Under the pieces are notes generated by a model. That model made no database searches, had not been told where the DNA came from, and saw nothing but the letters and a program-made list of their open reading frames with translations. Below are positions 3,864 to 20,577 of a DNA stretch of 64,000 nt, one piece after another; within the stretch, counting starts at the first letter, position 1; the number at the start of each line of letters is the position of its first letter. This stretch comes from Actinophytocola gossypii (GTDB taxonomy: Bacteria; Actinomycetota; Actinomycetes; Mycobacteriales; Pseudonocardiaceae). Location: assembly GCF_025165815.1 (NCBI RefSeq), contig NZ_JAFFZE010000017.1, forward strand, positions 62,001 to 126,000, given 5' to 3'. The position numbers and the translations under genes were made by a program.

Positions 3864-5017
3864 CCGACTACACCCCGCGCAAGGAGCACAGGTTCAGCTT
3901 CGGGCTGTGGACCGTGGGCTGGCAGGGCGTCGACCCGTTCGGCGTGGCCACCCGCGAGCCGATGGACCCCGCGTACGCGGTGGAGAAGCTCGCCGAGCTG
4001 GGCGCGTACGGCGTCACGTTCCACGACGACGACCTGATCCCGTTCGGCGCCGACGACACCGAGCGGTCGAGCCGGATCGCGAGCTTCCGCAAGGCGCTGG
4101 ACAACACCGGGCTCGTGGTGCCGATGGCGACCACGAACCTGTTCGCCCACCCGGTGTTCAAGGAAGGCGCGCTGACCTCCAACGACCGGGACATCCGCCG
4201 GTTCGCGCTGCGCAAGGTGCTGCGCAACATCGACCTCGCCGCCGAGCTGGGCGCGAGGACCTACGTGCTGTGGGGCGGCCGCGAGGGCGCGGAGTCCGGG
4301 GTGGCCAAGGACGTCCGGGCCGCGCTGGACCGGTACAAGGAGGCGCTGGACCTCCTCTGCGGCTACGTCCGCGAGCAGGGCTACGACCTCCGTTTCGCGT
4401 TGGAGCCCAAGCCGAACGAGCCGCGCGGCGACATCCTGCTGCCGACGATCGGGCACGCGATCGCGTTCATCGGCGAGCTGGACGAGCCGGACCGGGTGGG
4501 CCTGAACCCCGAGGTCGGGCACGAGCAGATGGCCGGCATGTCCGTGGTGCACGGGTACGCGCAGGCGCTGTGGCACGGCAAGCTGTTCCACATCGACCTG
4601 AACGGGCAGAACGGTCCGCGCTACGACCAGGACCTGCGGTTCGGCAACGGTGACGTGAAGAGCGCGTTCCTGCTCGTGGACCTGCTCGAACACGGCGGCT
4701 ACGACGGCCCGAGGCACTTCGACTTCAAGCCGGCCCGCACCGAGGACGAGTCGGGCGTGTGGTCCTCGGCCCGGTCGTGCATGCGCAACTACCTGATCCT
4801 GGCCGAGAAGGCGCGGGCGTTCCGCGCCGACCCGGAGGTGGCCGAAGCGCTGGCGGCGGCCCGCGTCGACCAGATGTCGGTGCCGACGCTCGGGGACGGC
4901 GAGTCGCTCGCCGACCTGCGGGCCGAGGAGCTTGACCTGGCCGAGGCGACCGTGCGCGGCGCCAAGGTGGAGCACCTGGACCAGTTGGCGCTCGAACACC
5001 TCTACGGCACCCGCTGA
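3860..5017 (+). CDS. xylA: Xylose isomerase
   Basis: A 385-residue enzyme converting D-xylose to D-xylulose (and glucose to fructose), close in length and sequence to the actinobacterial class I enzyme of ~388 residues. Catalytic and metal-binding segments are all present: [10 protein letters not shown] with the base His, [10 protein letters not shown] with the catalytic Lys and a metal Glu, [20 protein letters not shown], and HFDFKP. The start overlaps the preceding oxidoreductase stop. A strong hairpin follows the gene. Xylulokinase is not adjacent but lies 14 kb downstream at 19177. Confidence 0.97.
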
Positions 5018-5056: not shown

Positions 5057-5125
5057 TAATCACGGAAAGGAGTTTTCTCCCTCTTCGCGGTCCCCATTTC
5101 GGTGAGAACAAGGAGAAAAGTACCA

Positions 5126-8100
5126 GTGCGAGGGAACAGTCCGAGTAAGAACGCGTTAAATCCACCAGGAATCAGGCGGGTGCTTTCCCGTATCGGTGTC
5201 GCCGGTGTGGCGCTGGCCACCGGCCTCAGCCTGGCCGCGACGCCGGCCGCCGCGCACGAGGACCCGACGGTCCTGGTGTTCTCGAAGACCGCCGGATTCC
5301 GGCACGACTCCATTCCCACTGGCATCGCCGCGATCCAGGATCTCGGCGCCGAACACGGTTTCGCCGTCGAGGCCACTGAGGACGCGGCCGCGTTCACCGA
5401 GGAGAACCTCTCCCACTACGCCGCCGTCGTGTGGCTGTCCACGACCGGGGACGTCCTCAACGACGCGCAGCAGGCCGCCTTCGAGGGCTACATCGAGAAC
5501 GGCGGCGGCTACGCGGGCGTGCACGCCGCGGCCGACACCGAGTACGACTGGCCGTGGTACGGCGAGCTCGTCGGCGCGTACTTCAAGTCCCACCCGCACA
5601 TCCAGGAAGCCGATGTGCACGTGGAGCACCACGACCACCCGTCGACCGCCGGCCTGCCGGACACCTGGACCCGCACCGACGAGTGGTACAACTACCGCAC
5701 CAACCCGCGCGAAGCGGTGAAGGTGCTCGCCACCCTCGACGAGACCAGCTACGACCCCGGCGGCGACGCCATGGGCGACCACCCGATCATGTGGTGCAAG
5801 TCCCAGGGCGATGGCCGGTCCTGGTACACCGGCGGCGGCCACACCATCGAGTCCTACAGCGAGCCGGAGTTCCTCGACCACCTCGCGGGTGGCATCCGGT
5901 ACGCCGCGGGCATCGAGGCGGCCGACTGCGCGCCGAACACGGACCCGAACCAGCCGCCGACCGACGAGGACTTCGACCAGATCACCCTGGCGAAGGGCGA
6001 GCCGCAGACCGGCGAGCCGATCGCGATGGCGGTGCTGCCCGACCGCAGCGTCATCCACACCTCGCGCGACGGCCGGGTGTTCCTCACCACCCCGGAGGCG
6101 ACCACCACCCTCGCCGGGCAGATCCCCGTCTACAACCACGACGAGGACGGCCTGCAGGGCGTCGCGGTCGACCCGAACTTCACCGAGAACCGCTGGGTCT
6201 ACCTGTACTACGCGCCGCCGCTGGACACCCCGGCCGGTGACGCGCCGGAGAACGGCACCGCGGCCGACTTCGAACCGTTCAAGGGCCACAACCAGCTCTC
6301 CCGGTTCAAGCTGGCCGAGGACGGCACCATCGACATGGCCAGCGAGCAGCAGATCCTGCAGGTCCCGGCCGACCGAGGCCTGTGCTGCCACGCCGGCGGC
6401 GAGATCGACTTCGACGCCGACGGCAACCTGCTGCTGTCCACCGGGGACGACACCAACCCGTTCGCCTCGGACGGCTACACGCCGATCGACGAGCGGGCCG
6501 ACCGCAACCCGGCGTTCGACGCCCAGCGGTCCTCCGCCAACACCAACGACCTGCGCGGCAAGCTGCTGCGGATCGACGTGCAGGACGACGGCGGCTACAC
6601 CATCCCCGAGGGCAACCTGTTCGCCGAGAGCACCGAGAAGACCCGCCCGGAGATCTACGCCATGGGCTTCCGGAACCCGTTCCGGTTCGCCGTGGACCCG
6701 GAGACCGGCTGGATCTACCTCGGTGACTACGGCCCGGACGCCGGTGCGCCCAACCCGGAGCGCGGCCCGGGCGGCACCGTCGAGTTCAACCTGATCAAGG
6801 AGCCGGGCAACTACGGCTGGCCGTACTGCGTCGGGGACAACGAGCCGTTCGTCGACTACGACTTCGCCAGCCAGACCTCCGGCGAGCCGTTCGACTGCGC
6901 GGCACCGAAGAACGAGAGCCCGCACAACACCGGCCTGGTCGACCTGCCGCCGGTGCAGCCGGCCTGGATCCCCTACAACGGGGACTCGGTGCCGGAGTTC
7001 GGCAACGGCCCGGAGTCGCCGATGGGCGGCCCGACCTACCACTTCGACCCGGAGCTGGACTCGCCGACGAAGTTCCCGGAGTTCTACGACGGCAAGAACT
7101 TCGCCTACGAGTGGGATCGGGGCTGGATCAAGACGATCGAGGTCGGCGCGAACGGTGAGCGCGGCGCGATCGAGCCGTTCTTCGACTCGATGACGCTGAC
7201 CAGGCCGATGAACATCGAGTTCGGTCCCGACGGTTCGATGTACGTGCTCGACTACGGCAGCGGCTACTTCGGCGGCGCCGAGGACTCGGCCGTCTACCGG
7301 ATCGACTACACCAAGGGGAACAACACCCCGCAGGTGCGACTGGCCGCGGACAGGACGTCCGGTCCGGCACCGCTGGACGTGGCGTTCGACCCGACCGGCA
7401 CCGCCGACGAGGACGGCGGCGACCTGACCTACGCGTGGGACTTCGACGGGGACGGCACCACCGACTCCACCGAGGAGGGCCCGGTCTCCCACACCTACTC
7501 GGAGGTCGGCCAGTACACCGCGCACCTGTCGGTGACCGACGAGTCCGGCCTGACCGGCGCGGCCAGCGTGGTGATCACGGTGGGCAACACCGCGCCGGAG
7601 GTGAAGCTCGACCTCCCGGCCAACGGCGGGTTCTTCGGCTTCGGTGACACGGTGCCGTTCAAGGTCACGGTGACCGACCCGGAGGAAGGCACGATCGACT
7701 GCTCCAAGGTGACCGTGGAGTACATCCTCGGGCACGACAGCCACGGCCACCCGCTGTCCCGGGCGACCGGGTGCGAGGGCACGATCGAGACGCCGGCGGA
7801 CGAGGGTCACGGCCTGGACGCCAACGTGTTCGGGGTGATCAACGCCAGCTTCACCGACTCCGGCGCGAACGGCGCCCCGGCGCTGACCGGCTCCGACGAG
7901 ATCATCCTGCAGCCCAAGCTCAAGCAGGCCGAGTTCTTCTCGGAGAACAACGGCACCGAGGTGGTCAACCAGGGTGACGCCAGCGGCGGCAAGCGGGTCG
8001 GCTACATCGACGACGGCGACTGGATCAAGTTCGACCCGGTGAACCTGACCGGGGTGGACGCGATCGGCTACCGGGTGTCCTCCGGCGGCGCCGGCGGCAC

Positions 8101-9724
8101 CATCACCGTCCGCAAGGACGCGGTCGACGGCCCGGTCGTGCAGACCGTGGACGTGGCCAACACCGGTGGCTGGGACAACTACGTCGACATCCCGGCCGCG
8201 CCGATCACCGACCCGGGCGGCAGTGGCCCGCTGTACCTGGTGTTCAACGGCACCGGCACCGGCGGCCTGTTCGACGTGGACGCCGTCAACGTCGAGGGCT
8301 CGGGTGTCGCCGACGGCGGCGGTCCGGCCGAGTGCCAGCCGTGGACGCCGGACGAGGGCTACCGCGCCCTGTTCGACGGCACCTCGGCGAGCCTGGACGG
8401 CTGGCGCCAGTCCGGTCCCGGGAGCTTCGAGCTGCAGCCGGACTGCACGATCAGGTCCGTCGGCGGCATGGGCCTGCTGTCGGTCGACGAGGAGTGGGGC
8501 GCCTACAGCCTCAAGCTGGACTGGAAGATGGCCGGGGACGACAACTCCGGCATCTTCGTGGGCTACCCCGACCCGGGCGACGACCCGTGGGTCGCGGTGA
8601 ACCAGGGCTACGAGATCCAGATCGACGCGACGGACGCGCCGGACCGCACGACCGGCTCGATCTACACCTTCCAGGCGGCCGACATCCCCGCGCGGGACGA
8701 GGCGCTCAACCCGCCGGGGGAGTGGAACGCCTACGAGATCGTCGTGGTGGGGCAGACCATCCGGGTCTACCTCAACGGGGTGCTGATCAACGACTTCACC
8801 AGCACCGACCCGGCGCGGGACCTGACCCAGGGCTTCGTCGGGATCCAGAACCACGGCGACAGCGACGACGTCTCGTTCCGCAACATCCAGATCTCCGAGA
8901 TCGTGGACGAGACGGCGCCGGTGACCGAGGCGACCTTCGAGCCGGCCGGCGCCGAGGGCTGGCACCCCGGCACGGTTCCGGTCGAGCTCACCGCCACCGA
9001 CGCGGGCGGCCAGGGCGTGACCAGCATCGAGTACAAGCTCGACGACGGTCCGTGGACGACCTACACCGGCACCGTCGAGGTGACCGGTGACGGCGCTCAC
9101 ACCCTGCTCTACCGGGCGACGGACCGGGCCGGGAACGTGGAGGCGGAGAAGGCCGCCACGATCAAGATCGACGGCACCAAGCCGACGCTGATGGTGGCCG
9201 GGGTGGCCGACGGCCGGGTCTACGGCGACGCCACCGACGTGGTGCTGTCGTGGCACGCCGAGGACGCCACGTCCGGGGTGCGCACGGTGACCGGTGAGCT
9301 GGACGGCTCGCCGGTGGTCTCCGGTCGCACGCTCGCGCTGTACCAGCTGCCGCTCGGGCTGCACTCGTTCTCGGTGTCCGCTGTGGACACCGCAGGCAAC
9401 ACGCAGACCCAGGCGGTGGACTTCGCGACGACGACGTCCCTGCGGGACATGAGCCAGCTGATCGACCGGTTCCGGGCGACCAACCGGCTCACGGTGTCCG
9501 AGCACCAGCAGCTGGAGTCGCTGATGAAGAAGATCCGCCGGGCCGAGGCGAACGGCAAGGACGCCAAGGCCGTGCGGTTCCTGAACACGTTCGTCCAGCT
9601 TGTGACGGACGAGACCTTCATCCGCGACGCGGACATCCGTACCGTTCTCGAACGTGATGCCCGCGCGATGATCGATTCCATCGAAGGGGTGGCCGTGCTG
9701 CCCCGAGCGGTGAACTCACGATGA
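5126..9724 (+). CDS. Secreted multidomain protein: ThuA / PQQ-type sugar dehydrogenase / PKD / CBM6 / DUF1080 / FIMAH
   Basis: A 1532-residue exported protein. Domains in order: Sec signal peptide (residues 1-43, ending TPAAA); ThuA-like domain (~47-262, GVHAAADTEYDWPWY); soluble glucose/aldose dehydrogenase-type beta-propeller (~283-728, LLLSTGDDTNPF, DLRGKLLRID); PKD domain (~732-820); linker; CBM6-like module (~932-1059); DUF1080, now called 3-keto-disaccharide hydrolase domain (~1070-1259, SGIFVGYP); two Ig-like domains (~1265-1437); and a C-terminal FIMAH domain (~1438-1519). GTG 5126 is preferred to GTG 5102 because AGGAG lies 10 nt before it. ThuA and DUF1080 families occur with 3-keto-sugar catabolism, so an extracellular role in carbohydrate oxidation or cleavage is inferred. 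The substrate is unknown. Confidence 0.9.
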   Translation: MRGNSPSKNALNPPGIRRVLSRIGVAGVALATGLSLAATPAAAHEDPTVLVFSKTAGFRHDSIPTGIAAIQDLGAEHGFAVEATEDAAAFTEENLSHYAAVVWLSTTGDVLNDAQQAAFEGYIENGGGYAGVHAAADTEYDWPWYGELVGAYFKSHPHIQEADVHVEHHDHPSTAGLPDTWTRTDEWYNYRTNPREAVKVLATLDETSYDPGGDAMGDHPIMWCKSQGDGRSWYTGGGHTIESYSEPEFLDHLAGGIRYAAGIEAADCAPNTDPNQPPTDEDFDQITLAKGEPQTGEPIAMAVLPDRSVIHTSRDGRVFLTTPEATTTLAGQIPVYNHDEDGLQGVAVDPNFTENRWVYLYYAPPLDTPAGDAPENGTAADFEPFKGHNQLSRFKLAEDGTIDMASEQQILQVPADRGLCCHAGGEIDFDADGNLLLSTGDDTNPFASDGYTPIDERADRNPAFDAQRSSANTNDLRGKLLRIDVQDDGGYTIPEGNLFAESTEKTRPEIYAMGFRNPFRFAVDPETGWIYLGDYGPDAGAPNPERGPGGTVEFNLIKEPGNYGWPYCVGDNEPFVDYDFASQTSGEPFDCAAPKNESPHNTGLVDLPPVQPAWIPYNGDSVPEFGNGPESPMGGPTYHFDPELDSPTKFPEFYDGKNFAYEWDRGWIKTIEVGANGERGAIEPFFDSMTLTRPMNIEFGPDGSMYVLDYGSGYFGGAEDSAVYRIDYTKGNNTPQVRLAADRTSGPAPLDVAFDPTGTADEDGGDLTYAWDFDGDGTTDSTEEGPVSHTYSEVGQYTAHLSVTDESGLTGAASVVITVGNTAPEVKLDLPANGGFFGFGDTVPFKVTVTDPEEGTIDCSKVTVEYILGHDSHGHPLSRATGCEGTIETPADEGHGLDANVFGVINASFTDSGANGAPALTGSDEIILQPKLKQAEFFSENNGTEVVNQGDASGGKRVGYIDDGDWIKFDPVNLTGVDAIGYRVSSGGAGGTITVRKDAVDGPVVQTVDVANTGGWDNYVDIPAAPITDPGGSGPLYLVFNGTGTGGLFDVDAVNVEGSGVADGGGPAECQPWTPDEGYRALFDGTSASLDGWRQSGPGSFELQPDCTIRSVGGMGLLSVDEEWGAYSLKLDWKMAGDDNSGIFVGYPDPGDDPWVAVNQGYEIQIDATDAPDRTTGSIYTFQAADIPARDEALNPPGEWNAYEIVVVGQTIRVYLNGVLINDFTSTDPARDLTQGFVGIQNHGDSDDVSFRNIQISEIVDETAPVTEATFEPAGAEGWHPGTVPVELTATDAGGQGVTSIEYKLDDGPWTTYTGTVEVTGDGAHTLLYRATDRAGNVEAEKAATIKIDGTKPTLMVAGVADGRVYGDATDVVLSWHAEDATSGVRTVTGELDGSPVVSGRTLALYQLPLGLHSFSVSAVDTAGNTQTQAVDFATTTSLRDMSQLIDRFRATNRLTVSEHQQLESLMKKIRRAEANGKDAKAVRFLNTFVQLVTDETFIRDADIRTVLERDARAMIDSIEGVAVLPRAVNSR

Positions 9725-9735
9725 TCGGTTGAACT

Positions 9736-9773
9736 CTCGGTGGGTCGGCGGCCCGTGCCGCCGGCCCACCGAG
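9736..9773 (+). terminator. Hairpin terminator between the ThuA gene and the ebo-like operon
   Basis: Arms 9736-9752 and 9757-9773 form a 17-bp stem with one G-U wobble and a 4-nt loop. It starts 11 nt after the stop of the secreted protein gene, so the following six-gene cassette is probably transcribed separately or by read-through. Confidence 0.75.
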
Positions 9774-9809: not shown

Positions 9810-10982
9810 ATGTCAGCGAACGAACCGACCGGGCTGTGGCTGGTCGGCGCCCGTGGGTCGGTGGCCACCACGGCCGTGACCGGCCTGTTGGCCCTGCGCG
9901 CGGGGTTGACCGCGCCGACCGGCTGTGTGACCGAGCGTGAGCCGTTCACCCGCCTAGGTCTGCCCAGCTGGGAGAACCTGGTGGTCGGCGGGCACGACGT
10001 GGTGTGCACGCCGCTGGACAAACGAGCCGAGCAACTGGCCGAGTCGGGTCTGATCCCGCCCCGCGTCCTGGCCGCGACCACGACCGGCCTGCAAGCCGCC
10101 GACACCGAGATCCGCGACGGCTACCACCCGGCCACCCACACGGGTTCCCAGGCCGAGGCCGCCGAGCACCTGACGTCCGACATCACGTCGTTCCGCGAGC
10201 GCCACGGTCTCGCGCGCGTCGTGGTGGTGAACGTGTCCTCCACCGAACCCCCCGTACCGCACGTCCCCGAGCACGACTCCCTGTCCGCGCTCGAGACCGC
10301 GCTGGCTGACCCGACCCGCACGGTCCTCCCCCCGAGCAGCCTGAACGCCTACGCCGCGCTCCGAGCCGGCTGCCCGTTCGTGGACTTCACCCCGTCCCCC
10401 GGGATGCGCCTCCCCGCCCTGCACGAGCTGGCGGTGGCCGAGGGTCTCCCGTACGCCGGCTCCGACGGCAAGACCGGCGAAACCCTGCTGCGGACCGTGC
10501 TCGCCCCCATGTTCACCGCCAGAGCCCTGCGCGTTCGCTCCTGGGCCGGCACGAACCTCCTCGGCGGCGGCGACGGCGCGAACCTGGCGGATCCCACGCA
10601 GGCCAAGGGCAAACTGGACTCCAAGGCCAGGGGCCTCGCGGCGCTGCTCGGCGAGGGCGTGACCGCTCCGCTGCACATCGACAACGTGCCCGACCTGGGC
10701 GAGCAGAAGACCGCGTGGGACCACGTGTCGTTCGAGGGCTTCCTCGGCGCGCGGATGAGCCTCCAGCTGACCTGGAACGGCCTGGACTCCGCCCTGGCCG
10801 CCCCCCTGGTCCTGGACCTGGCCAGGCTGACCGCCGCCGCCCACGCGGCCGGCGAGTCGGGCCCCCTGGGTGCGCTGGCGTTCTTCTTCAAGGACCCCAT
10901 CGGCTCCGACGAGCACCGCTTCGCCGAGCAGACCACCATGCTCACCGAGTGGGCCGAGTCCCTCGGGGAGCGGCGGGCGTGA
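9810..10982 (+). CDS. Inositol-3-phosphate-synthase-like NAD-dependent cyclase
   Basis: A 390-residue member of the myo-inositol-1-phosphate synthase superfamily, which cyclises glucose 6-phosphate by a bound-NAD redox cycle. Seen: a nucleotide-binding start GLWLVGARGSVATT, the family hallmark NVSSTEPP, and SDGKTGETLLRT with the expected catalytic Lys at about 221, followed by SWAGTNLLGGGDG. It is not of the short Ino1 type that I recall for mycothiol and phosphatidylinositol synthesis in actinobacteria, so it is probably a second, specialised cyclase. ATG 9810 has a purine-rich AAAGGGG upstream. It overlaps the next gene by 4 nt and stands where other ebo clusters carry the cyclase EboD. The true substrate and product are unknown. 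Confidence 0.85.
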   Translation: MSANEPTGLWLVGARGSVATTAVTGLLALRAGLTAPTGCVTEREPFTRLGLPSWENLVVGGHDVVCTPLDKRAEQLAESGLIPPRVLAATTTGLQAADTEIRDGYHPATHTGSQAEAAEHLTSDITSFRERHGLARVVVVNVSSTEPPVPHVPEHDSLSALETALADPTRTVLPPSSLNAYAALRAGCPFVDFTPSPGMRLPALHELAVAEGLPYAGSDGKTGETLLRTVLAPMFTARALRVRSWAGTNLLGGGDGANLADPTQAKGKLDSKARGLAALLGEGVTAPLHIDNVPDLGEQKTAWDHVSFEGFLGARMSLQLTWNGLDSALAAPLVLDLARLTAAAHAAGESGPLGALAFFFKDPIGSDEHRFAEQTTMLTEWAESLGERRA

Positions 10983-11833
10983 AGGCCTACCTCCAGCTCG
11001 TCCGCGCGCCGGCCGCGTTGACCGTCCTCGGCGACACCGTCGCCGGGGCCGCGGCGGCCGGCCGGCCACTGCGCGGGCGACGCCTGCTCCTCCCGCTGTC
11101 CTCCGCCGCCTTCTACTGGTCCGGCATGGCCCTCAACGACTGGGCCGACCGCGACCTCGACGCCACCGAACGCCCCGAACGCCCCATCCCCTCCGGCCGC
11201 GTCACCCCCGAGGGCGCGCTCGCCGTGGCCGGCGGCCTCACCGCCACCGGCCTCGGCCTCGCCGCGGTCGCCGGCGGCCGGGACGCGGTCAAGGTCGCCG
11301 TGCCGCTCGCCGCCGCGGTCTGGGCCTACGACACCGTCCTCAAGTCGACCCCCGCCGGCCCCGTCGGCATGGCCGTCTGCCGGACCCTCGACGTCCTCCT
11401 CGGCGCCGGGGCCAGCAACGCCCGCACCGCCCTCCCGGCCGCCGCCGCGGTCGGCGGGCACACGCTCGGCGTCACCGCCCTGTCCCGCGGCGAGGTGCAC
11501 GGCGCGTCACCCGCCACCGCCACCTCCGCGCTCGCCGGCACCGCCGTCGCCACCGCGGCGGCGGTCGGCGGGCGCGCCCGCTCGATCCGCCACCGGCTCG
11601 GCGCGGCCACCGCGGCCGCGCTGTACTCCACCACCGTCGGCAGAGCACAGCTCGACGCCAGGCAGGACCCCTCCGCCGCCACCGTCCGGCGGGCCACCAT
11701 GGCCGGCATCCACGGCATGGTCCCGCTCCAGGCCGCGCTCGCCGCCCGCCGCGGGTCCCTGCTCGGCGCGCTCGCCGTCGCCGCCGCGCTGCCGGTCGCC
11801 CGCGCCCTGTCCCGGAAGGTGAGTCCGACATGA
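10979..11833 (+). CDS. eboC: UbiA-family prenyltransferase (EboC-like)
   Basis: A 284-residue polytopic membrane protein. The first Asp-rich motif NDWADRDLDATERPERPIPS is the NDxxDxxxD site that binds Mg-prenyl diphosphate, and AYDTVLKSTP corresponds to the second conserved loop. Long Ala/Gly/Val-rich hydrophobic stretches make up the remaining helices. The start is the GTG within the GTGA overlap with the cyclase stop; longer in-frame extensions run into the cyclase reading frame and are unlikely. By family it transfers a polyprenyl group to a small acceptor in the membrane. Both the acceptor (perhaps a cyclitol from the preceding gene) and the prenyl donor are unknown. Confidence 0.85.
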   Translation: MKAYLQLVRAPAALTVLGDTVAGAAAAGRPLRGRRLLLPLSSAAFYWSGMALNDWADRDLDATERPERPIPSGRVTPEGALAVAGGLTATGLGLAAVAGGRDAVKVAVPLAAAVWAYDTVLKSTPAGPVGMAVCRTLDVLLGAGASNARTALPAAAAVGGHTLGVTALSRGEVHGASPATATSALAGTAVATAAAVGGRARSIRHRLGAATAAALYSTTVGRAQLDARQDPSAATVRRATMAGIHGMVPLQAALAARRGSLLGALAVAAALPVARALSRKVSPT

Positions 11834-13281
11834 CCTTCCACCTCGGGTACGGCACCAACGGGTTCGCCAACCACCGCCTCGACGACGCCCTGCGCGTGAT
11901 CGCCGACCTCGGCTACACCTCCGTCGCGCTCACCCTCGACCACCACCACCTCGACCCGTACGGCGACGACGTCGTCTCCGCGACCGACCACGTCGCCGTG
12001 CTGCTCGGCCGGCTCGGGCTGCGGTGCGTCGTCGAGACCGGCGCCCGCTACCTGCTCGACCCCACCCACAAGCACCACCCCACGCTGGTCTGCGACGAGC
12101 CGGAGCGCCGGATCGACTTCCTGCACCGCGCCGTGCGCATCGCCGCCGAGCTCGACGCGGACTGCGTGTCGTTCTGGTCCGGCATCCGTCCCTCCTCAGT
12201 GGACCCGGGAACCGCGTGGCGGCGGATGCGCGACGGCACCGCCGCGGTCCTCGACGAGGCCGGGGCACTGGGCGTCCGGCTGGGACTCGAACCGGAGCCG
12301 GGCATGTTCGTCGAGCGCCTGGCCGACGCGCTGCGCCTTCGCGAGGAGCTCGGCGCGCCGGACCTGCTCGGCATCACGCTGGACGTCGGCCACTGCGTCG
12401 CGGTCGAGCCGGAGGACGCGGCGGCCTGCATCCGCCGTGCCGCCGGCCTGCTCGTCAACGTGCAGCTGGACGACATGCGCACCGGGGTGCACGAGCATCT
12501 CGAGTTCGGCGAGGGCGAACTCGATCTGCCGGCGACCCTGGCCGCGCTGACCGAGGTCGGCTACTCCGGCGTCGCGGCGGTCGAGCTGCCTCGGCACAGC
12601 CACGCGGCGCCGGACGTGGCCACCCGAGCGATCGCCGCGCTGCGGGCGGCGCTCGAACCGGGACCGCACGACGTGGAATGGGTGAGCGACGTGGACCATC
12701 CCTGGCTGGTGGACGCCGAGCAGCGGGTCCGCAGTGACCCGGCGGCGATCCGGACACTGTTCCCGGCGGTCGGGCGCAAGGTCGGGCGGGCGGCACTGCG
12801 CCCGGAGTCCGACCCGCAGGGCCTGGTGCACGGCACCGTCGACGACCTGGCCCGCACCCGCCTGCTGGCCGTGCTCGCCGAGGTGCTCGACGCACCTGCG
12901 CTGGCCGGCGAGGTCGCCGAGCTGTACCGCTACGGCGACGACGCCGAGCGCCGAGGCGTGCTGCGCGGGCTCACCACGCTGCCGCCCGACGCCGTGCCGG
13001 CCGGACTGGAGATCGTCCGGGACGCGTTGCGCGCCAACGACATCCGGCTCGTCGCCGCCGCGATGGGCGAGTTCGGTGCGCGGAACCTGGACGACCACGC
13101 CTGGCGGCACGGGGTGCTCAAGTGCCTGTTCGTCGGCGTGCCGCTGGCCGCCGTGGTGGAGCTGTCCCGCCGCACCGACGGCGAGCTGCTGCGGATGGTC
13201 GCCGACTACGCCGACGAGCGCCGCGCCGCGGGCCGTGACGTGCCCGCCGACGCCGAACGACTGCTGGAGGTAGGCGCATGA
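11830..13281 (+). CDS. eboA: TIM-barrel (AP endonuclease 2-like) domain fused to EboA domain
   Basis: A 483-residue two-domain protein. Residues 1-~275 form a sugar phosphate isomerase/epimerase-like barrel with plausible metal ligands in LEPEPG (E154/E156), LDVGHC (D185, H188), VQLDDM and VELPRH (E252). Residues ~290-483 match the EboA family: YRYGDDAERRGVLRGL, VRDALRANDIRLVAAAMGEF, LKCLFVGVPL and YADERRAAGR. EboA is usually a stand-alone protein of unknown function, so the fusion suggests that EboA acts together with an isomerase/epimerase. The ATGA overlaps at both ends place it firmly in the operon. Confidence 0.83.
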   Translation: MTFHLGYGTNGFANHRLDDALRVIADLGYTSVALTLDHHHLDPYGDDVVSATDHVAVLLGRLGLRCVVETGARYLLDPTHKHHPTLVCDEPERRIDFLHRAVRIAAELDADCVSFWSGIRPSSVDPGTAWRRMRDGTAAVLDEAGALGVRLGLEPEPGMFVERLADALRLREELGAPDLLGITLDVGHCVAVEPEDAAACIRRAAGLLVNVQLDDMRTGVHEHLEFGEGELDLPATLAALTEVGYSGVAAVELPRHSHAAPDVATRAIAALRAALEPGPHDVEWVSDVDHPWLVDAEQRVRSDPAAIRTLFPAVGRKVGRAALRPESDPQGLVHGTVDDLARTRLLAVLAEVLDAPALAGEVAELYRYGDDAERRGVLRGLTTLPPDAVPAGLEIVRDALRANDIRLVAAAMGEFGARNLDDHAWRHGVLKCLFVGVPLAAVVELSRRTDGELLRMVADYADERRAAGRDVPADAERLLEVGA

Positions 13282-14141
13282 GGATCTTCGACCCGCACAT
13301 CCACATGACGTCGCGGACCACCGACGACTACGAGGCCATGTTCGACGCCGGGGTGCGCGCGCTGGTCGAGCCGTCGTTCTGGCTCGGGCAGCCGCGCACC
13401 AGCGTCGCGTCGTTCACCGACTACTTCGACAGCCTCATCGGCTGGGAGCGGTTCCGGGCCGCGCAGTTCGGCATCCGCCACCACTGCACGATCGCGCTGA
13501 ACCCCAAGGAGGCCAACGACCCGCGCTGTCGCGAGGTGCTCGACCTGCTGCCGCGCTACCTCGCCAAGGACGGCGTGGTCGCGGTCGGCGAGGTCGGCTA
13601 CGACTCGATGACGCCGGAGGAGGACGAGGTCTTCGCCGGGCAGCTCCAGCTCGCGGTGGAGCACGAACTGCCCGCCCTGGTGCACACCCCGCACCGGGAC
13701 AAGCTCGCCGGCACCCACCGCACCCTCGACGTGGTGCGCGAGTCCGGCCTGGAGCCGGGCCGGGTGCTGGTGGACCACCTCAACGAGCCGACGGTCGCGG
13801 TGGTCGCGGACTCCGGCTGCTGGATGGGCTTCTCCATCTACCCGGACACCAAGATGGACGAGCAGCGCATGGTCGCGATCCTGCGCGAGTACGGCACCGA
13901 CCGGATGATCGTCAACTCGGCCGCCGACTGGGGCCGCTCGGACCCGCTGAAGACGTACAAGACCGGCCTGGCCATGCTCGGCGCCGGGTTTACCGAGTCC
14001 GATGTGGACAAGGTGCTGTGGCGGAACCCGGTGGAGTTCTACGGGCAGAGCGACCGGCTGGTGCTCGACGAGCTGCCCGGCTTCGCGCCGTCGACCGAGA
14101 CGTTCGCCGGCAACTCGGTGCTGCGCGGGGGCGGTGCATGA
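13278..14141 (+). CDS. eboB: TatD-like metal-dependent hydrolase (EboB)
   Basis: A 287-residue amidohydrolase-superfamily barrel. Metal-binding residues can be followed through the fold: HIH at 7-9, GEVGYD (E105), VHTPH (H136/H139), VDHLNE (H167) and NSAADWG (D217). The long insert after residue 30 (FWLGQPRTSVASFTDYFDS) is typical of EboB proteins and differs from the nuclease TatD. ATGA overlaps link it to the EboA fusion before and EboE after. A hydrolytic step on the cluster's unknown metabolite is inferred; the actual reaction is not known for any ebo cluster. Confidence 0.85.
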   Translation: MRIFDPHIHMTSRTTDDYEAMFDAGVRALVEPSFWLGQPRTSVASFTDYFDSLIGWERFRAAQFGIRHHCTIALNPKEANDPRCREVLDLLPRYLAKDGVVAVGEVGYDSMTPEEDEVFAGQLQLAVEHELPALVHTPHRDKLAGTHRTLDVVRESGLEPGRVLVDHLNEPTVAVVADSGCWMGFSIYPDTKMDEQRMVAILREYGTDRMIVNSAADWGRSDPLKTYKTGLAMLGAGFTESDVDKVLWRNPVEFYGQSDRLVLDELPGFAPSTETFAGNSVLRGGGA

Positions 14142-15280
14142 CGGTCACCCCGCTGTCGTACTGTACCAACGTCCATCCCGCCGAGGACCTCGACGGCGTG
14201 CTGGCCCAGCTCGACCGCTACGCCGAGCCGGTGCGCCGGCTGGTCGGCACCGACGTGCTCGGGCTCGGCCTGTGGCTGCCGGCCGCGCTCGCCGCCGGCC
14301 TCGCCGACGACCCGGCACTGCGCGCGAAGCTGCGCACCGAGCTCGACGCACGCGGCCTCGAGGTGCACACGCTCAACGCCTTCCCCTACGGCGGCTTCCA
14401 CGACGAGGTCGTCAAGCACTCGGTGTATCGTCCACAGTGGACGGACCAGCGCCGGCTGGAGTACACCCTGGACTGCGCGACCGTGCTGGCCGACCTGCTG
14501 CCCGACGGCGCCCGCTACGGCAGCATCTCCACCCTGCCGCTGGCCTGGCGCACCCCGTGGGACGACGCCGACGACGCGGCCGCGATGCGCGCGCTGACCG
14601 AGCTCACCGCCGTCCTCGACGGCATGGCGAGCCGCGACGGCCGCCCGATCCGACTGGCCGTCGAGCCGGAGCCCGGCTGCGTGCTCGACTCTGTCGCCGA
14701 CGCGGTCCGCTGGCTCGCGCCCCGGGTCGACCCGCGCTACGTCGGGTTGTGCCTGGACACCTGCCACCTCGCGGTGTCCTTCGCAGACCCGGCCGAGACC
14801 GTCGCCGAGATCCACCGGGCCGGCCTGTCCGTGGTCAAGGTGCAGGCGTCGGCGGCGCTACAGGTCGAGGAGCCGGCCAGCGAGGCCGCCCAGCAGGCAC
14901 TCGCCGACTTCACCGAGCCGCGCTACCTGCACCAGGTGCGCGAGCGCACCGAGGACGGCGTCGTGCTCGGCGCCGACGACCTGCCCCAGGCGCGCACCGA
15001 GCTGCCCGCATTGCGCACCTGGCGGGTGCACTTCCACGTGCCGCTGCACGCCCGCCCGGCCGCCCCGCTGTCGGCCACCACCGACGTCCTGCGTGCCGCC
15101 GTGGCCGCGCTGGCGTCTACTGTGGACGAATTGCCGCACGTCGAGGTGGAGACCTACACCTGGAGCGTGCTGCCGGAGACCGCGGGCAACGGTGGCGACA
15201 CCGCACTGATCCGCGGCATCGCCGCCGAGCTGCGCTGGGCCGCCGCCCAGCTGCTCGGCCAGGACGGAGGGGTGAGATGA
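14138..15280 (+). CDS. eboE: EboE metabolite-traffic protein (TIM barrel)
   Basis: A 380-residue protein with the EboE-typical opening PLSYCTNVHPAEDLDGVLAQ, then TLNAFPYGGFH, LAVEPEPGCVLDS, LCLDTCHLAV and the C-terminal HVEVETYTWSVLP. It belongs to the xylose-isomerase-like barrels, with E, D and H residues in positions compatible with a divalent metal site. In cyanobacteria ebo genes are needed to deliver the scytonemin precursor to the periplasm, but the molecular activity of EboE is unknown. It overlaps both neighbours by 4 nt. Confidence 0.87.
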   Translation: MTVTPLSYCTNVHPAEDLDGVLAQLDRYAEPVRRLVGTDVLGLGLWLPAALAAGLADDPALRAKLRTELDARGLEVHTLNAFPYGGFHDEVVKHSVYRPQWTDQRRLEYTLDCATVLADLLPDGARYGSISTLPLAWRTPWDDADDAAAMRALTELTAVLDGMASRDGRPIRLAVEPEPGCVLDSVADAVRWLAPRVDPRYVGLCLDTCHLAVSFADPAETVAEIHRAGLSVVKVQASAALQVEEPASEAAQQALADFTEPRYLHQVRERTEDGVVLGADDLPQARTELPALRTWRVHFHVPLHARPAAPLSATTDVLRAAVAALASTVDELPHVEVETYTWSVLPETAGNGGDTALIRGIAAELRWAAAQLLGQDGGVR

Positions 15281-16686
15281 GCACACCGGTCGTGCTGATC
15301 GACGTCGTGGGGCTGACGCCGAAACTGCTGCGGTACATGCCGAACCTGACCGCGCTGGCGCACCGGGGCTGGCAGGCCGAGCTGGGCACCGTGCTGCCCG
15401 CGGTGACCTGCAGCGCCCAGTCGACGTTCCTGACCGGCAGGATGCCGGCCGAGCACGGGATCGTCGGCAACGGCTGGTACTTCCGCGACCTCGGCGAGGT
15501 CTACCTGTGGCGCCAGCACAACCGGCTCGTCCAGGGCGAGAAGGTCTGGGAGGCCGCGCGCGCGGCGAACCCCGACTTCACCGCGGCGAACGTCTGCTGG
15601 TGGTACGCGATGGGCGCCACCACCGACATCACGGTCACGCCGCGTCCGATCTACCACGCCGACGGCCGCAAGTCCCCCGACGCCTACGTGCGCCCGCCCG
15701 CCCTGCACGACGAGCTGGTCGGCGCGCTCGGCGAGTTCCCGCTGTTCCAGTACTGGGGCCCGACCGCGGCGCTGACGTCGAGCGAGTGGATCATCGGCGC
15801 GTCCCGCAAGGTGCTCCGCGAGCACCACCCGGACCTGCTCCTGGTGTACGTCCCGCACCTGGACTACGACCTGCAACGCCACGGCCCCGACGGCCCCGAG
15901 GCGATGCGTGCCGCCCGCGAGGTGGACGCCGCGCTCGCCCCGCTGCTGGCGGACGCGCAGAACGCTGGCGCCACGGTGGTCGCGCTGTCCGAGTACGGCA
16001 TCACGCCGGTGCGCCGCCCGGTCGACATCAACCGCCTGCTGCGTACCGAGGGGCTGCTCGAGGTTTACACCCAGGCCGGCATGGAGTACCTCGACCCGTG
16101 GACGTCACGCGCGTTCGCGGTCGCCGACCACCAGGTCGCGCACGTGTACGTCAACGACCCGGCCGACCTGCCCCGGGTCCGCGACCTGCTCGGTGAGCTG
16201 TCCGGCGTGGACGAGGTGCTGGACCGCGAGGCGCAGGCCCGCTACGGCATCGACCACGAACGCGCCGGGGAGCTGGTGGTCACCGCCGAGCCGGACGCCT
16301 GGTTCACCTACTACTACTGGCTCGACGACGACCGCGCCCCGGACTTCGCCCGCGGGGTGGAGATCCACCGCAAGCCCGGCTACGACCCGGCGGAGCTGTT
16401 CTTCGACCCCGCGGACAAGCTGGTCAAGGCGAAGGCCGGGCTGAACCTGGTGCGCAAGAAGGTCGGCCTGCGGTACGCGATGAGCACGGTGCCGCTGGAC
16501 CCGTCGTACGTGCGCGGCTCGCACGGCCGGCTGCCCGACCGCCCGGAGGACGGTCCGGTGCTGCTGTGCTCGGTGCCCGACGCCGAGCCGGGCGACCGCG
16601 TCGCGGCGACCGAGGTCCACGATCTTCTGCTGAGGCTGCAAGGGATAGGCGAGGGCAGTTCGAAACGAGCCGGCTCCGCCAGATGA
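15277..16686 (+). CDS. eboF: Alkaline phosphatase-superfamily phosphodiesterase/pyrophosphatase-like protein (EboF)
   Basis: A 469-residue protein of the nucleotide pyrophosphatase/phosphodiesterase clan. The N-terminal [11 protein letters not shown] supplies a metal Asp (D9), [21 protein letters not shown] contains the expected nucleophile Thr at about 44, [15 protein letters not shown] resembles the HxxD/H metal motif, and LSEYGI replaces the usual SDHG. Near residue 412 there is a Lys-rich stretch. It has no signal peptide. Being last in the cassette, it may remove a phosphate or split a diphosphate of the cluster's product. The 3' end takes part in a long RNA hairpin (16651-16728). Confidence 0.82.
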
Positions 16687-16753: not shown

Positions 16754-17758
16754 ATGAGTCGACCAGTCACGCTGTTCACCGGCCAGTGGGCCGACCTCCC
16801 GTTCGAGGAGGTGTGCAAGCTCGCCGCGCAGTGGGGCTACGACGGCCTGGAGATCGCCTGCTCCGGCGACCACTTCGAGGTGGACCGGGCCCTGGCCGAG
16901 GACGACTACGTGTCGAACAAGCTCGCCCAGTTGGAGCGGCACGGCCTGAAGGTGTGGACGATCTCCAACCACCTGGTAGGCCAGGCGGTGTGCGACGACC
17001 CCATCGACGACCGGCACAAGAACATCGTGCCGGCTCGCATCTGGGGCGACGGCGACCCCGAGGGCGTGCGCCAGCGCGCCGCCGAGGAGCTGAAGGACAC
17101 CGCGCGGGCCGCCGCGAAGCTCGGCGTGGACACGGTCGTCGGCTTCACCGGCTCGAAGATCTGGAAGTACGTCGCGATGTTCCCGCCGGTGTCGCAGGAC
17201 GTCATCGACGACGGCTACGCCGACTTCGCGCGCCGGTGGAACCCGATCCTCGACGTGTTCGACGAGGTCGGCGTGCGGTTCGCGCACGAGGTGCACCCGT
17301 CGGAGATCGCCTACGACTACTGGACGACCAAGAAGACCCTGGAAGCGGTCGGCAACCGGCCGGCGTTCGGGCTCAACTGGGACCCGTCGCACTTCGTGTG
17401 GCAGGACCTCGACCCGGTCGGGTTCATCCTCGACTTCGCCGACCGGATCTACCACGTGGACTGCAAGGACACCAAGAAGCGGTTCGACGGCCGCAACGGA
17501 CGGATGGGCAGCCACCTTGCCTGGGCGGACCCGCGCCGGGGCTGGGACTTCGTGTCCACCGGTCACGGCGACGTGCCGTGGGAGGAGTGCTTCCGCGCCC
17601 TGAACTCGATCGGCTACACCGGCCCGATCTCGGTGGAGTGGGAGGACGCCGGCATGGACCGCCTGCGCGGTGCCGAGGAGGCCGTGACGTTCATCCGCAA
17701 CCTGATCTTCGACAAGCCGACCGCGGCGTTCGACGCGGCGTTCTCCACGAAGGACTGA
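16754..17758 (+). CDS. Sugar phosphate isomerase/epimerase (TIM barrel)
   Basis: A 334-residue cytosolic AP endonuclease 2-type barrel. Candidate metal ligands occur in [29 protein letters not shown] and VEWEDAGMD, the order seen in IolE/IolI-like and related isomerases. AAGGAG lies about 8 nt before the ATG. It follows eboF by 67 nt, beyond a long inverted repeat, and precedes a secreted paralogue by 35 nt. Enzymes of this kind epimerise or isomerise keto-sugars or inosose derivatives; the substrate here is unknown. It may serve the Gfo/Idh/MocA and ThuA pathway rather than the ebo cassette. Confidence 0.87.
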
Positions 17759-17793: not shown

Positions 17794-18645
17794 ATGACGG
17801 TTTCGAGAAGGACGATGCTGCGCGGCGCCGCCGCCGGAGCGATCGTCGCCGGCGCCGCCGTCGCGGTGCCCGGCACCGCGAGCGCCACCGGCGGCGGGCG
17901 CTGGTGGCGGCGGCGGGTGCCGAAGGACAAGATCAGCATCCAGCTGTACACGCTGCGCTCGATCATGGAGAACGACGTCGAAGGCACGCTGTCCGCGCTG
18001 GCCGACATCGGCTACCGCAAGGTCGAGATGGCCGGCACGTACGGCCGCAGCGCGCGGGAGTTCCGCGGCATCCTCGACCGCCACCACCTCCGTGCGACGT
18101 CGACGCACATGGGTATCGACGGCGACATCAACCAGGCGATCGAGGACGCGAAGATCCTCGGCAACCGCAAGAGCGACGTGGCCTGGGCGAGCTTCCCGAC
18201 GATCGCCGAGTGGCAGGACTTCGCCGAGCGCCTCGACGCGGCGGGCCGGGCCTACCGCCGAGCCGGGATCGAGTTCGGGTACCACAACCACGGCCACGAG
18301 TTCCAGCGGATCGACGGCGTGCGCCCGTACGACGTGATCACCCGGTGCACGAAGCGGCGGAACGTGAACCTGGAGATGGACCTGTTCTGGGTCATCGACG
18401 GCGGCGCCGACCCGGTGCGCGAGTTCTACCGGATCGCGGGTCGGGTCAACCAGTACCACGTCAAGGACCGCACCCCCGACGGCAACTTCGCCGACCTGGG
18501 CGAGGGCACGATCGATTTCGCCCACATCTTCCGCGCGACCTGGCCGCTGGAGGTGGACGAGTACATCGTGGAGAACGACGAGCCCGTCGACCCCCTGAAG
18601 TGCGCCGAGACCGGCTACAACTACCTGAGAAACCTCCGATTCTGA
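17794..18645 (+). CDS. Exported (Tat) sugar phosphate isomerase/epimerase-like protein
   Basis: A 283-residue TIM-barrel protein with a clear twin-arginine signal: SRRTMLRGAAAG (from residue 4), then a hydrophobic Ala/Val core and a cleavage region around TASATG. The mature part contains metal-site segments EFGYHNHGHEF, NLEMDLFWV, YHVKDRTPDGNF and YIVENDEP. GGAAGGG precedes the ATG. An extracytoplasmic isomerase suggests the pathway acts on a sugar outside the membrane, in keeping with the secreted ThuA/DUF1080 protein at 5126. This type is often found with 3-keto-glycoside-processing enzymes; that role is inferred. Confidence 0.85.
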   Translation: MTVSRRTMLRGAAAGAIVAGAAVAVPGTASATGGGRWWRRRVPKDKISIQLYTLRSIMENDVEGTLSALADIGYRKVEMAGTYGRSAREFRGILDRHHLRATSTHMGIDGDINQAIEDAKILGNRKSDVAWASFPTIAEWQDFAERLDAAGRAYRRAGIEFGYHNHGHEFQRIDGVRPYDVITRCTKRRNVNLEMDLFWVIDGGADPVREFYRIAGRVNQYHVKDRTPDGNFADLGEGTIDFAHIFRATWPLEVDEYIVENDEPVDPLKCAETGYNYLRNLRF

Positions 18646-19176: not shown

Positions 19177-20577
19177 ATGCCGCTGGTGGCCGGGGTCGAC
19201 TCGTCGACCCAGTCCTGCAAGGTCGTGGTGCGGGACGCGGAGTCCGGGGCGCTCGTGCGCAGCGGCACCGCCTCGCACCCCGACGGGACCGAGGTGGACC
19301 CGGCGGCGTGGTGGACCGCGCTGCGGCAGGCGATCGAGCGGGCGGGCGGCGTCGACGACGTCGCCGCTGTCTCGGTCGCCGGGCAGCAGCACGGCATGGT
19401 GTGCCTGGCCGAGGACGGATCCGTCGTCCGGCCCGCCCTGCTGTGGAACGACACCCGCTCCGCGCCGGCCGCCGAGGCGCTGGTCGCCGAGCTGGGCGGC
19501 CCGGCGGCCTGGGCCGACGCGATCGGCGTCGTTCCGGTGGCGTCGGTGACCGTGACCAAGCTGCGCTGGCTCGCGGAGCACGAGCCGGACGCCGCGGCCC
19601 GCACGGCCGCGGTGTGCCTGCCGCACGACTACCTGACCTGGCGGCTGCGCGGGGATCCGGATCTCGCCACGCTCGTCACCGACCGCGGCGACGCGTCCGG
19701 GACCGGGTACTACGCGCCGGCCACCGGGACCTACCGGCCCGACCTGCTGGAGCTGGCCATGGGCCGGGTGCCGGAGCTGCCGACCGTGCTAGGTCCGTCC
19801 GACACCGCCGGACGGCTGCCCTCGGGCGCGATCCTCGGTGCCGGTACCGGTGACAACATGGCCGCCGCGCTGGGGGTCGGGGCCGAGCCCGGTGACGTGG
19901 TCGTGTCGATCGGCACCTCCGGCACCGTGTTCGCGGTCGCCGACAAGCCGAGCGCCGACCCGGCAGGCCTGGTCGCCGGGTTCGCCGACGCCACCGGCCG
20001 GTTCCTCCCGCTCGTGTGCACGCTCAACGCCGCCCGCGTCCTGGACGCCACCGCCCGCATGATGAGCGTCGACCACGACACGTTCGCCGACCTGGCCCTC
20101 GCCGCGCCCCCGGGCGCCGACGGCCTGGTGCTGGTCCCGTACCTGGAGGGCGAGCGCACCCCGAACCTGCCGACCGCGACCGGTGCCCTGCACGGCCTCC
20201 GCCTGGCCAACGCGACGCCCGCGCACCAGGCCCGGGCCGCCGTCGAGGGCATGCTGTGCGGCCTGGCCGACGCGCTGGACGCCCTGGTCGCCCAGGGTGT
20301 GCGGGTGGAGCGGGTCCTGCTCGTCGGCGGCGCGGCCCGCTCGGTCGCCGTCCAGCAGGTCGCGCCGACGGTGCTCGGGCGCCCGGTACTGGTTCCCGAA
20401 CCCGGCGAGTACGTGGCCGACGGCGCGGCGCGTCAGGCGGCGTGGGCGCTGATCGGCACCGATCACCCGCCGGCCTGGCGCCTCGGTGGCCTGGAGCGGG
20501 TGGACGGCGAGCCGACGCCCGGTCTGCGCGAGCGCTACGCCGAGGCCCGCGGCCGGGTCCTCGACCGTCCGGCCTGA
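19177..20577 (+). CDS. xylB: Xylulokinase (FGGY family)
   Basis: A 466-residue kinase that phosphorylates D-xylulose to xylulose 5-phosphate, completing the xylose route started by xylA. FGGY features: [10 protein letters not shown] (ATP/phosphate loop 1, residues 6-15), [10 protein letters not shown] (the xylulokinase-type QHG motif), [17 protein letters not shown] (phosphate 2) and [10 protein letters not shown] with adenosine-binding residues. ATG 19177 is chosen because GGAGG lies 8 nt upstream. It stands alone downstream of a 531-bp repeat-rich region, so it has its own promoter or is read from the isomerase genes. Confidence 0.95.

What the first reader, a model, noticed from the sequence alone, without database searches (positions are those of the whole stretch)
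9810..16686. Actinobacterial ebo-type operon with an inositol-phosphate-synthase in the place of EboD
Six genes joined by five successive 4-nt stop/start overlaps encode a cyclase, EboC-like prenyltransferase, TIM-EboA fusion, EboB, EboE and EboF. Elsewhere (cyanobacteria, Pseudomonas, eustigmatophyte endosymbionts) the ebo set uses EboD, a dehydroquinate-synthase-like sugar-phosphate cyclase. Here a myo-inositol-phosphate-synthase-like protein replaces it. Both enzyme types make cyclitols by an NAD redox cycle, so the replacement suggests that the unknown ebo metabolite is built on a cyclitol that is then prenylated and moved or processed. The system's chemistry is undescribed as far as I know.
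Basis: partly seen in the sequence, partly recalled or inferred. Interest (0 to 1): 0.85.

Follow-up and report, generated by a model that had tools for sequence, protein, structure and literature searches.

The report
Ebo operon using an inositol synthase
A known but chemically unsolved bacterial operon ("ebo") occurs here in a form that starts from an inositol-phosphate synthase instead of its usual ring-forming enzyme, which gives chemists a defined first step from which to find the operon's unknown product.

Summary
Six genes (9810-16686, +) joined by five 4-nt overlaps encode an inositol-phosphate synthase (IPS), an EboC-type prenyltransferase, a TIM-EboA fusion, EboB, EboE and EboF. The genome has one EboE, one AroB and a separate mycothiol-type IPS; no EboD.

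The replacement is general. Of 88 loci with at least 3 of EboB/C/E/F, 18 have IPS only, 64 EboD only, 0 both, 6 neither. One MAG holds both types on separate contigs. IPS comes with a TIM-barrel gene; the TIM-EboA fusion is lineage-specific. IPS-type sets also occur in Gemmatimonadota and, without EboA/G and EboE, in haloarchaea. Ebo IPSs form one clade, yet the EboB tree needs three switches.

New: IPS-type operons often lie beside exported ThuA/sugar-dehydrogenase/3-keto-disaccharide-hydrolase proteins and exported TIM barrels (at least one in 11 of 16); ThuA, 3-keto hydrolase and exported TIM were found near 0 of 64 EboD-type loci.

Best reading: a cyclitol phosphate is modified, prenylated and used outside the membrane. 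The prenyl-cyclitol idea is in print (PMC5133447); product and activities are untested. New variant of a known kind.

The parts
5102..9724 (+). Exported (signal read by eye) multidomain protein: ThuA, glucose/sorbosone dehydrogenase (GSDH), PKD, CBM6, 3-keto-disaccharide hydrolase, FIMAH; conserved neighbour of IPS-type operons
   Evidence: Pfam; beside IPS in 20 own-family loci: GSDH 20, ThuA 18, 3-keto hydrolase 17; GSDH within 10 kb of EboE in 11 of 19 genomes
9736..9773 (+). 17-bp perfect hairpin in the 85-nt gap before the IPS start, no U tract (terminator- or attenuator-like)
   Evidence: z -5.45; hairpins of other sequence at the same place in several family loci
9810..10982 (+). IPS: myo-inositol-1-phosphate-synthase-like cyclase in the place of EboD
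10979..11833 (+). EboC-type (SCO3242 family) UbiA prenyltransferase
11830..13281 (+). TIM barrel (PF01261) fused to EboA (all-helical, HEAT-like domain)
13278..14141 (+). EboB, TatD-like metal-dependent hydrolase
14138..15280 (+). EboE, TIM barrel with the fold of ketose 3-epimerases and xylose isomerases
15277..16686 (+). EboF, type I phosphodiesterase/nucleotide pyrophosphatase family
16754..17758 (+). TIM-barrel sugar isomerase/epimerase, linked neighbour in the own family (60% identical to a gene beside the Gemmatirosa set)
   Evidence: beside IPS in 15 of 20 family loci; 0 of 16 other actinobacterial IPS loci
17794..18645 (+). TIM-barrel protein with twin-arginine signal (read by eye), linked neighbour
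   Evidence: 15 of 20 family loci, 9 of 16 other actinobacterial IPS loci, 0 of 64 EboD-type loci

Best explanation
This is an IPS-type variant of the ebo operon. Shown: homology, gene order, exclusivity per locus, kept IPS active-site residues, linkage to sugar enzymes that bear export signals. Inferred: (1) IPS, by its NAD redox cycle, turns glucose-6-phosphate or a similar sugar phosphate into an inositol-phosphate-type cyclitol; (2) the companion TIM barrel isomerises, epimerises or dehydrates that cyclitol, the pair doing the job of EboD; (3) EboC in the membrane attaches an isoprenoid chain; (4) EboF removes the phosphate that IPS, unlike EboD-type cyclases, leaves on the ring, or hydrolyses another phosphate ester; (5) EboB and the epimerase-like EboE modify the head group, with EboA as a helical scaffold; (6) the product is a prenyl-cyclitol lipid used on the outer face of the membrane, here together with exported sugar-oxidising and 3-keto-glycoside-cleaving proteins.
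Against: No product is known, and no activity in print that I saw except farnesylation of quinolines by flavobacterial EboC homologues (PMC9235831, passages), which points to aromatic acceptors. IPS occurs without ebo genes but with ThuA/GSDH/3-keto genes in L174 and L178, and with glycosyltransferases in Halomarina, so its product may serve another use. G128 has a second cluster with TIM but no IPS (L023). One MAG has both types. IPS relatives can make other rings (five-membered-cyclitol-phosphate synthase 6k96 is a relative). 5 of 16 actinobacterial IPS loci outside the own family show none of the exported partners. The order of steps is not tested.
Confidence: 0.55

Rival explanations
1. 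IPS belongs to the neighbouring exported sugar pathway rather than to the ebo pathway: it makes inositol phosphate for a solute or glycoside handled by the ThuA/GSDH/3-keto-hydrolase proteins, and the ebo genes are only co-regulated.
For: GSDH lies beside IPS in 20 of 20 own-family loci, ThuA in 18, 3-keto hydrolase in 17, including L174 and L178, which show no ebo genes; a Halomarina IPS of the same clade stands without ebo.
Against: IPS is the first gene of a tightly overlapping operon here; all 17 ebo-type IPS of the 396-genome sample lie in EboE-positive genomes; EboD-scale matches are missing where IPS is present; 5 of 16 other actinobacterial IPS loci show none of the sugar neighbours.
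Confidence: 0.2
2. EboD and IPS+TIM feed one and the same product by two routes, the downstream enzymes being indifferent to the source.
For: Gemmatimonadota EboC, EboE and EboF are 61-75% identical on either side of the switch; the switch is needed three times in the EboB tree.
Against: The window and Streptomyces EboC fit the SCO3242 model (381 and 347 bits, cut-off 260) far better than the EboC model (156 and 101, cut-off 250), Aureibacter the reverse, though haloarchaeal EboC scores alike on both and below both cut-offs; exported partners differ between the types; IPS keeps the phosphate (established enzymology) while sugar phosphate cyclases of the EboD superfamily lose it (PMC5133447).
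Confidence: 0.2
3. The acceptor of EboC is an aromatic compound, the ring being aromatised or coming from elsewhere (quinone-like or quinoline product).
For: Ubi-297 farnesylates 8-hydroxyquinoline-2-carboxylic acid (PMC9235831, passages); UbiA relatives make quinones; a cyclitol-derived prenylated compound, BE-40644, is cited in PMC5133447.
Against: No obvious dehydratase or oxidase for aromatisation among the six genes; Ubi-297 was assayed in membrane fractions with chosen aromatic acceptors, not with its native substrate.
Confidence: 0.12
4. Ebo proteins form a translocation complex for small molecules and make no metabolite.
For: Scytonemin monomer stays in the cytoplasm of ebo mutants (PMC6282210, passages); EboA models as an all-helical, HEAT-like domain.
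Against: The other members belong to enzyme families, and a ring-forming cyclase is present in 82 of 88 loci with 3 or more core genes; IPS keeps its active-site residues.
Confidence: 0.06

Closest known systems
ebo operon eboABCDEF (Bacteroidota, cyanobacteria, eustigmatophyte plastids; PMC5133447, PMC6282210)
   Same: EboA, EboB, EboC-type, EboE and EboF clustered together
   Different: No EboD; IPS and an additional TIM barrel instead; EboC of the SCO3242 type; different gene order; exported 3-keto-sugar neighbours
SCO3242/SCO3243 of Streptomyces coelicolor, listed as genes of the CDA antibiotic cluster SCO3210-SCO3249 (PMC3610822, passages)
   Same: NCBIfam names the prenyltransferase family after SCO3242 (window 381 bits); SCO3243, next by number, is listed as myo-inositol phosphate synthase
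   Different: There listed as CDA cluster genes; ebo is not mentioned in the passages seen. I did not fetch the S. coelicolor sequences
eboG-type operon (Deinococcus, Herpetosiphon; PMC5133447)
   Same: The Gemmatirosa set has EboG, and its EboB is closest to Herpetosiphon (74%) and Deinococcus (71%)
   Different: Deinococcus and Herpetosiphon loci carry EboD, Gemmatirosa IPS+TIM
Archaeoglobus fulgidus myo-inositol-1-phosphate synthase (1u1i)
   Same: Closest solved relative by sequence, E 1e-62; mutated active-site residues kept
   Different: Relation by sequence only; it was not in the tree, where ebo IPSs form their own clade

Membership tests
ebo operon (EboD type) | EboE (NF035939 over cut-off) | tested here: met
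   439 bits, cut-off 250
ebo operon (EboD type) | EboA or EboG | tested here: met
   EboA domain NF035938 155 bits, cut-off 50; the full EboA family model NF035937 is not reached (55, cut-off 320)
ebo operon (EboD type) | EboB of the ebo kind | tested here: met
   39-61% identity to 58 EboB of EboD-type loci, inside the EboB tree; no EboB model among the matches in NCBIfam or Pfam
ebo operon (EboD type) | EboC (NF035940 over cut-off) | tested here: not met
   156 bits, cut-off 250; instead NF045897 381 bits, cut-off 260
ebo operon (EboD type) | EboD in the cluster or genome | tested here: not met
   one DHQ_synthase-family gene in the genome, an AroB (TIGR01357 347 bits, cut-off 305; 171 on NF004852, which an Aureibacter EboD reaches with 531, cut-off 333); 160 bits on the EboD profile against 680 for G381
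ebo operon (EboD type) | EboF (PF01663) | tested here: met
   223 bits, cut-off 23
myo-inositol-1-phosphate synthase | both Pfam domains | tested here: met
   175 bits (cut-off 25) and 103 bits (cut-off 27)
myo-inositol-1-phosphate synthase | active-site lysines and asparagine | tested here: met
   23 of 23 rows; three positions known from mutant structures, the others named from recall
myo-inositol-1-phosphate synthase | makes inositol phosphate from glucose-6-phosphate | not testable with these tools
   needs an assay
mycothiol-pathway INO1 (TIGR03450) | score over cut-off | tested here: not met
   23 bits, cut-off 638; the genome's other IPS on C1 reaches 682
haloarchaeal sets as ebo | EboE (NF035939 over cut-off) | tested here: not met
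   20-27 bits in four haloarchaeal TIM proteins, cut-off 250
haloarchaeal sets as ebo | EboB, EboC-type, EboF, IPS and TIM relatives together | tested here: met
   3 of 4 plasmids; Haladaptatus lacks IPS on its plasmid. EboC below both curated cut-offs

The most novel reading that the evidence does not exclude
The ebo product is a lipid-soluble redox cofactor or electron carrier for exported beta-propeller sugar dehydrogenases. IPS-type operons serve extracytoplasmic oxidation and cleavage of 3-keto sugars in bacteria and haloarchaea; EboD-type operons serve other periplasmic oxidations, scytonemin maturation being one. This would explain the GSDH neighbours of both types, the cytochrome c genes beside some EboD-type sets and the need for the product outside the cytoplasm.
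Probability: 0.1. Interest if true: 0.9.

Novelty: new variant of a known kind. Interest (0 to 1): 0.62.

Why it matters
The operon was named in 2016 (PMC5133447) and I found no paper that identifies its product. EboD belongs to a superfamily with several possible substrates, so its product could not be predicted. IPS chemistry is known, its likely substrate is glucose-6-phosphate, and the variant occurs in tractable Streptomyces and in haloarchaea. That makes the cyclitol hypothesis directly testable. The contrast in neighbours between the two types also points to where the product acts.
Full report
Observation. Family scores: IPS PF07994/PF01658, EboC-type NF045897 (381 bits, cut-off 260), PF01261 TIM barrel fused to EboA NF035938, TatD-like EboB, EboE NF035939 (439 bits, cut-off 250), EboF PF01663. 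The window is G000:C52:62001-126000 of a 7.38-Mb genome in 53 contigs, 99% complete.

Own genome. One EboE, one SCO3242-type EboC, one DHQ_synthase-family gene, an AroB by curated model that scores 160 bits against the EboD profile, and two IPS genes: a mycothiol-type INO1 on C1 (682 bits, cut-off 638) and this one. So no EboD is hidden elsewhere in the held assembly.

Survey. Of 396 genomes of the phylum 19 have EboE, 18 over the cut-off. I fetched 19 stretches from the 18 besides G000. With the window that is 20 loci: IPS in 17, EboD in 1 (L026), neither in 2: L023, whose genome has a second, IPS-bearing cluster, and L040, whose EboE lacks its middle and whose genome has an IPS-TIM pair on another contig, L146. 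All 16 fetched IPS loci also show EboC, TIM, EboA, EboB, EboE and EboF. In the same 396 genomes 79 have some IPS of this broad kind at E 1e-30; the 17 of ebo type (14 over 430 bits, 3 split matches) are all in EboE-positive genomes. That scan was headed by a Gemmatirosa EboE, so it favours such relatives and cannot give the frequency of IPS-type operons. Over the set of 106 loci, 18 with fewer than three core genes were dropped; of the remaining 88, IPS only 18, EboD only 64, both 0, neither 6. The window and the haloarchaeal sets are not in that count. At genome level, among the 19 EboE-positive genomes an EboD-scale match (680 bits) is found only in G381, the EboD-type one; the other 18 show 179 bits or less, G318 (82% complete) nothing.

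Against clean exclusivity. The MAG G396 has an EboD-type contig (L052/L158) and a contig with IPS, TIM and part of an EboC (L156). The two EboC pieces overlap and differ, so they are two loci or two organisms in one bin.

Other groups. Gemmatirosa kalamazoonensis plasmid 2 has EboE divergent from EboG-EboB-EboF-EboC-IPS-TIM, and no EboD on that plasmid (its chromosome was not searched). Haloarchaeal plasmids: Halobaculum and Halocatena have TIM, EboC-type, TIM and EboB divergent from IPS and EboF; Natronococcus has the same genes on one strand; Haladaptatus has them without IPS on its plasmid. No EboA or EboG match over 40 bits was seen there, and four of their TIM proteins reach only 20-27 bits on the EboE model. 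Halomarina has a same-clade IPS without ebo genes. Only plasmid records were searched for haloarchaea.

Trees. IPS from ebo loci of all three groups form one clade of 23 rows (100/96), with the Halomarina row inside; IPS of YcaO-type clusters form another. The EboB tree needs three changes between IPS and EboD, with Gemmatirosa inside a supported clade with three EboD-bearing rows (98); EboF needs 3 and EboC 2. Rows with neither cyclase were not counted. The EboB, EboF and EboC trees used the quick method, with long-branch warnings for EboB and EboF and odd letter make-up for many EboC rows. TIM proteins that go with IPS form one family that includes TIMs from YcaO clusters, with haloarchaeal TIMs beside it (quick method, long branches). 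YcaO was confirmed by Pfam in L141 and by annotation in Roseomonas and Hymenobacter; in L142-L145 and L147 I infer the same type from IPS-TIM spacing and the IPS tree only. Since IPS and TIM travel together in two unrelated cluster types, TIM probably acts on the IPS product (inference).

Neighbours. The gene before IPS (5102-9724) is a ThuA-GSDH-PKD-CBM6-3-keto-disaccharide-hydrolase protein with a likely signal sequence, and the second gene after the operon (17794-18645) a TIM barrel with a twin-arginine signal, both signals read by eye. Ebo-type IPS is found in 4 of 5 further genomes of the genus and 15 of 30 others of the family. In 20 IPS loci of the family (19 genomes, 20 of the 24 match rows) GSDH is present in 20, ThuA 18, 3-keto hydrolase 17, the two TIM neighbours 15 each; the seven-part ebo set is complete in 16, two are cut by contig ends, and two (L174, L178) have IPS and the sugar genes without ebo. 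In the 16 fetched actinobacterial IPS loci: ThuA 8, GSDH 8, 3-keto 7, exported TIM 9, the gene like 16754 none; 11 of 16 show at least one, L022, L024, L033, L036 and L038 none. In 64 EboD-type loci: ThuA 0, 3-keto 0, exported TIM 0, GSDH 11, the gene like 16754 one. Fisher p-values: ThuA 4e-7, exported TIM 5e-8, 3-keto 4e-6, GSDH 0.02; loci are related, so these overstate. GSDH lies within 10 kb of EboE in 11 of 19 genomes against about 0.37 expected from its copy number, again without correction for relatedness. Gemmatimonadota L156 has a 3-keto/ThuA protein, Gemmatirosa relatives of both TIM neighbours, Halocatena a TIM with an export signal and an annotated ThuA protein, Haladaptatus a DUF1080 protein; Halobaculum and Natronococcus show none of these in the stretch fetched. 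Near EboD-type or other non-IPS sets I found GSDH in 12, cytochrome c in 8 and a NUDIX protein resembling isopentenyl-diphosphate isomerase in 6 of 68 loci, one representative of each checked by Pfam (the isomerase reading is mine).

Known work. PMC5133447 (passages and section 3.2 part 1 read) named the operon, proposed a prenylated cyclitol product and noted actinobacterial EboA hybrids with a xylose-isomerase-like domain; it has no occurrence of 'inositol'. PMC6282210 (passages) showed by deletion that ebo genes are needed for the periplasmic step of scytonemin synthesis and proposed a lipid carrier; eboD was not deleted there. PMC9235831 (passages) described EboC homologues farnesylating quinolines, and ebo genes in Saccharomonospora. 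PMC3610822 (passages) lists SCO3242 and SCO3243 as CDA cluster genes and PMC3897704 (one passage) SCO3243 under secondary metabolism. Streptomyces NBC_00376 likewise has an IPS-type ebo set beside an NRPS gene, MFS and ABC transporters and a phosphopantetheinyl transferase.

Verdict. Real and coherent: a variant of the ebo operon in which IPS plus a TIM barrel fills the EboD slot, present in Actinomycetota, Gemmatimonadota and, in reduced form, haloarchaea. It supports the published cyclitol idea with independent evidence and adds a specific link to exported 3-keto-sugar enzymes. Product, substrate and order of steps remain inference.

Noticed in passing
L132, L133, L141 (and by spacing L142-L145, L147): A different cluster pairs an IPS and a TIM barrel of the same families with YcaO and other genes (Gfo/Idh in L132 and L133) and no ebo genes.
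   Followed up: partly
window 9736-9773; L159-L164, L166, L171: Strong hairpins of differing sequence stand just upstream of IPS in own-family loci (by eye on folds).
   Followed up: partly
L174, L178: Ebo-type IPS beside ThuA/GSDH/3-keto genes without any ebo gene in the stretch.
   Followed up: partly
L023 (G128): Second ebo cluster without IPS, preceded by what looks by eye like an FAD-dependent desaturase-type gene, in a genome with an IPS-type cluster.
   Followed up: no
L156 and L158 (MAG G396): Both cyclase types in one metagenome bin, on separate contigs.
   Followed up: yes
L074, L082, L089, L093, L097, L098, L117, L124, L126: EboE-like genes with no other ebo gene found in the fetched DNA.
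   Followed up: no
L047, L048: A ferritin-like gene and a large hypothetical gene precede EboD-type sets in Aureibacter and Mycetohabitans.
   Followed up: no
window 3860-5017 and 19177-20577: A xylose-isomerase-like and a xylulokinase-like gene (by eye) flank the extended locus; the first is kept in 5 of 20 family loci.
   Followed up: partly
window 13278-14141: The closest solved relative of EboB by sequence is the uncharacterised A. fulgidus AF_1765 (3guw, E 5e-25); the closest solved IPS is from the same organism.
   Followed up: no
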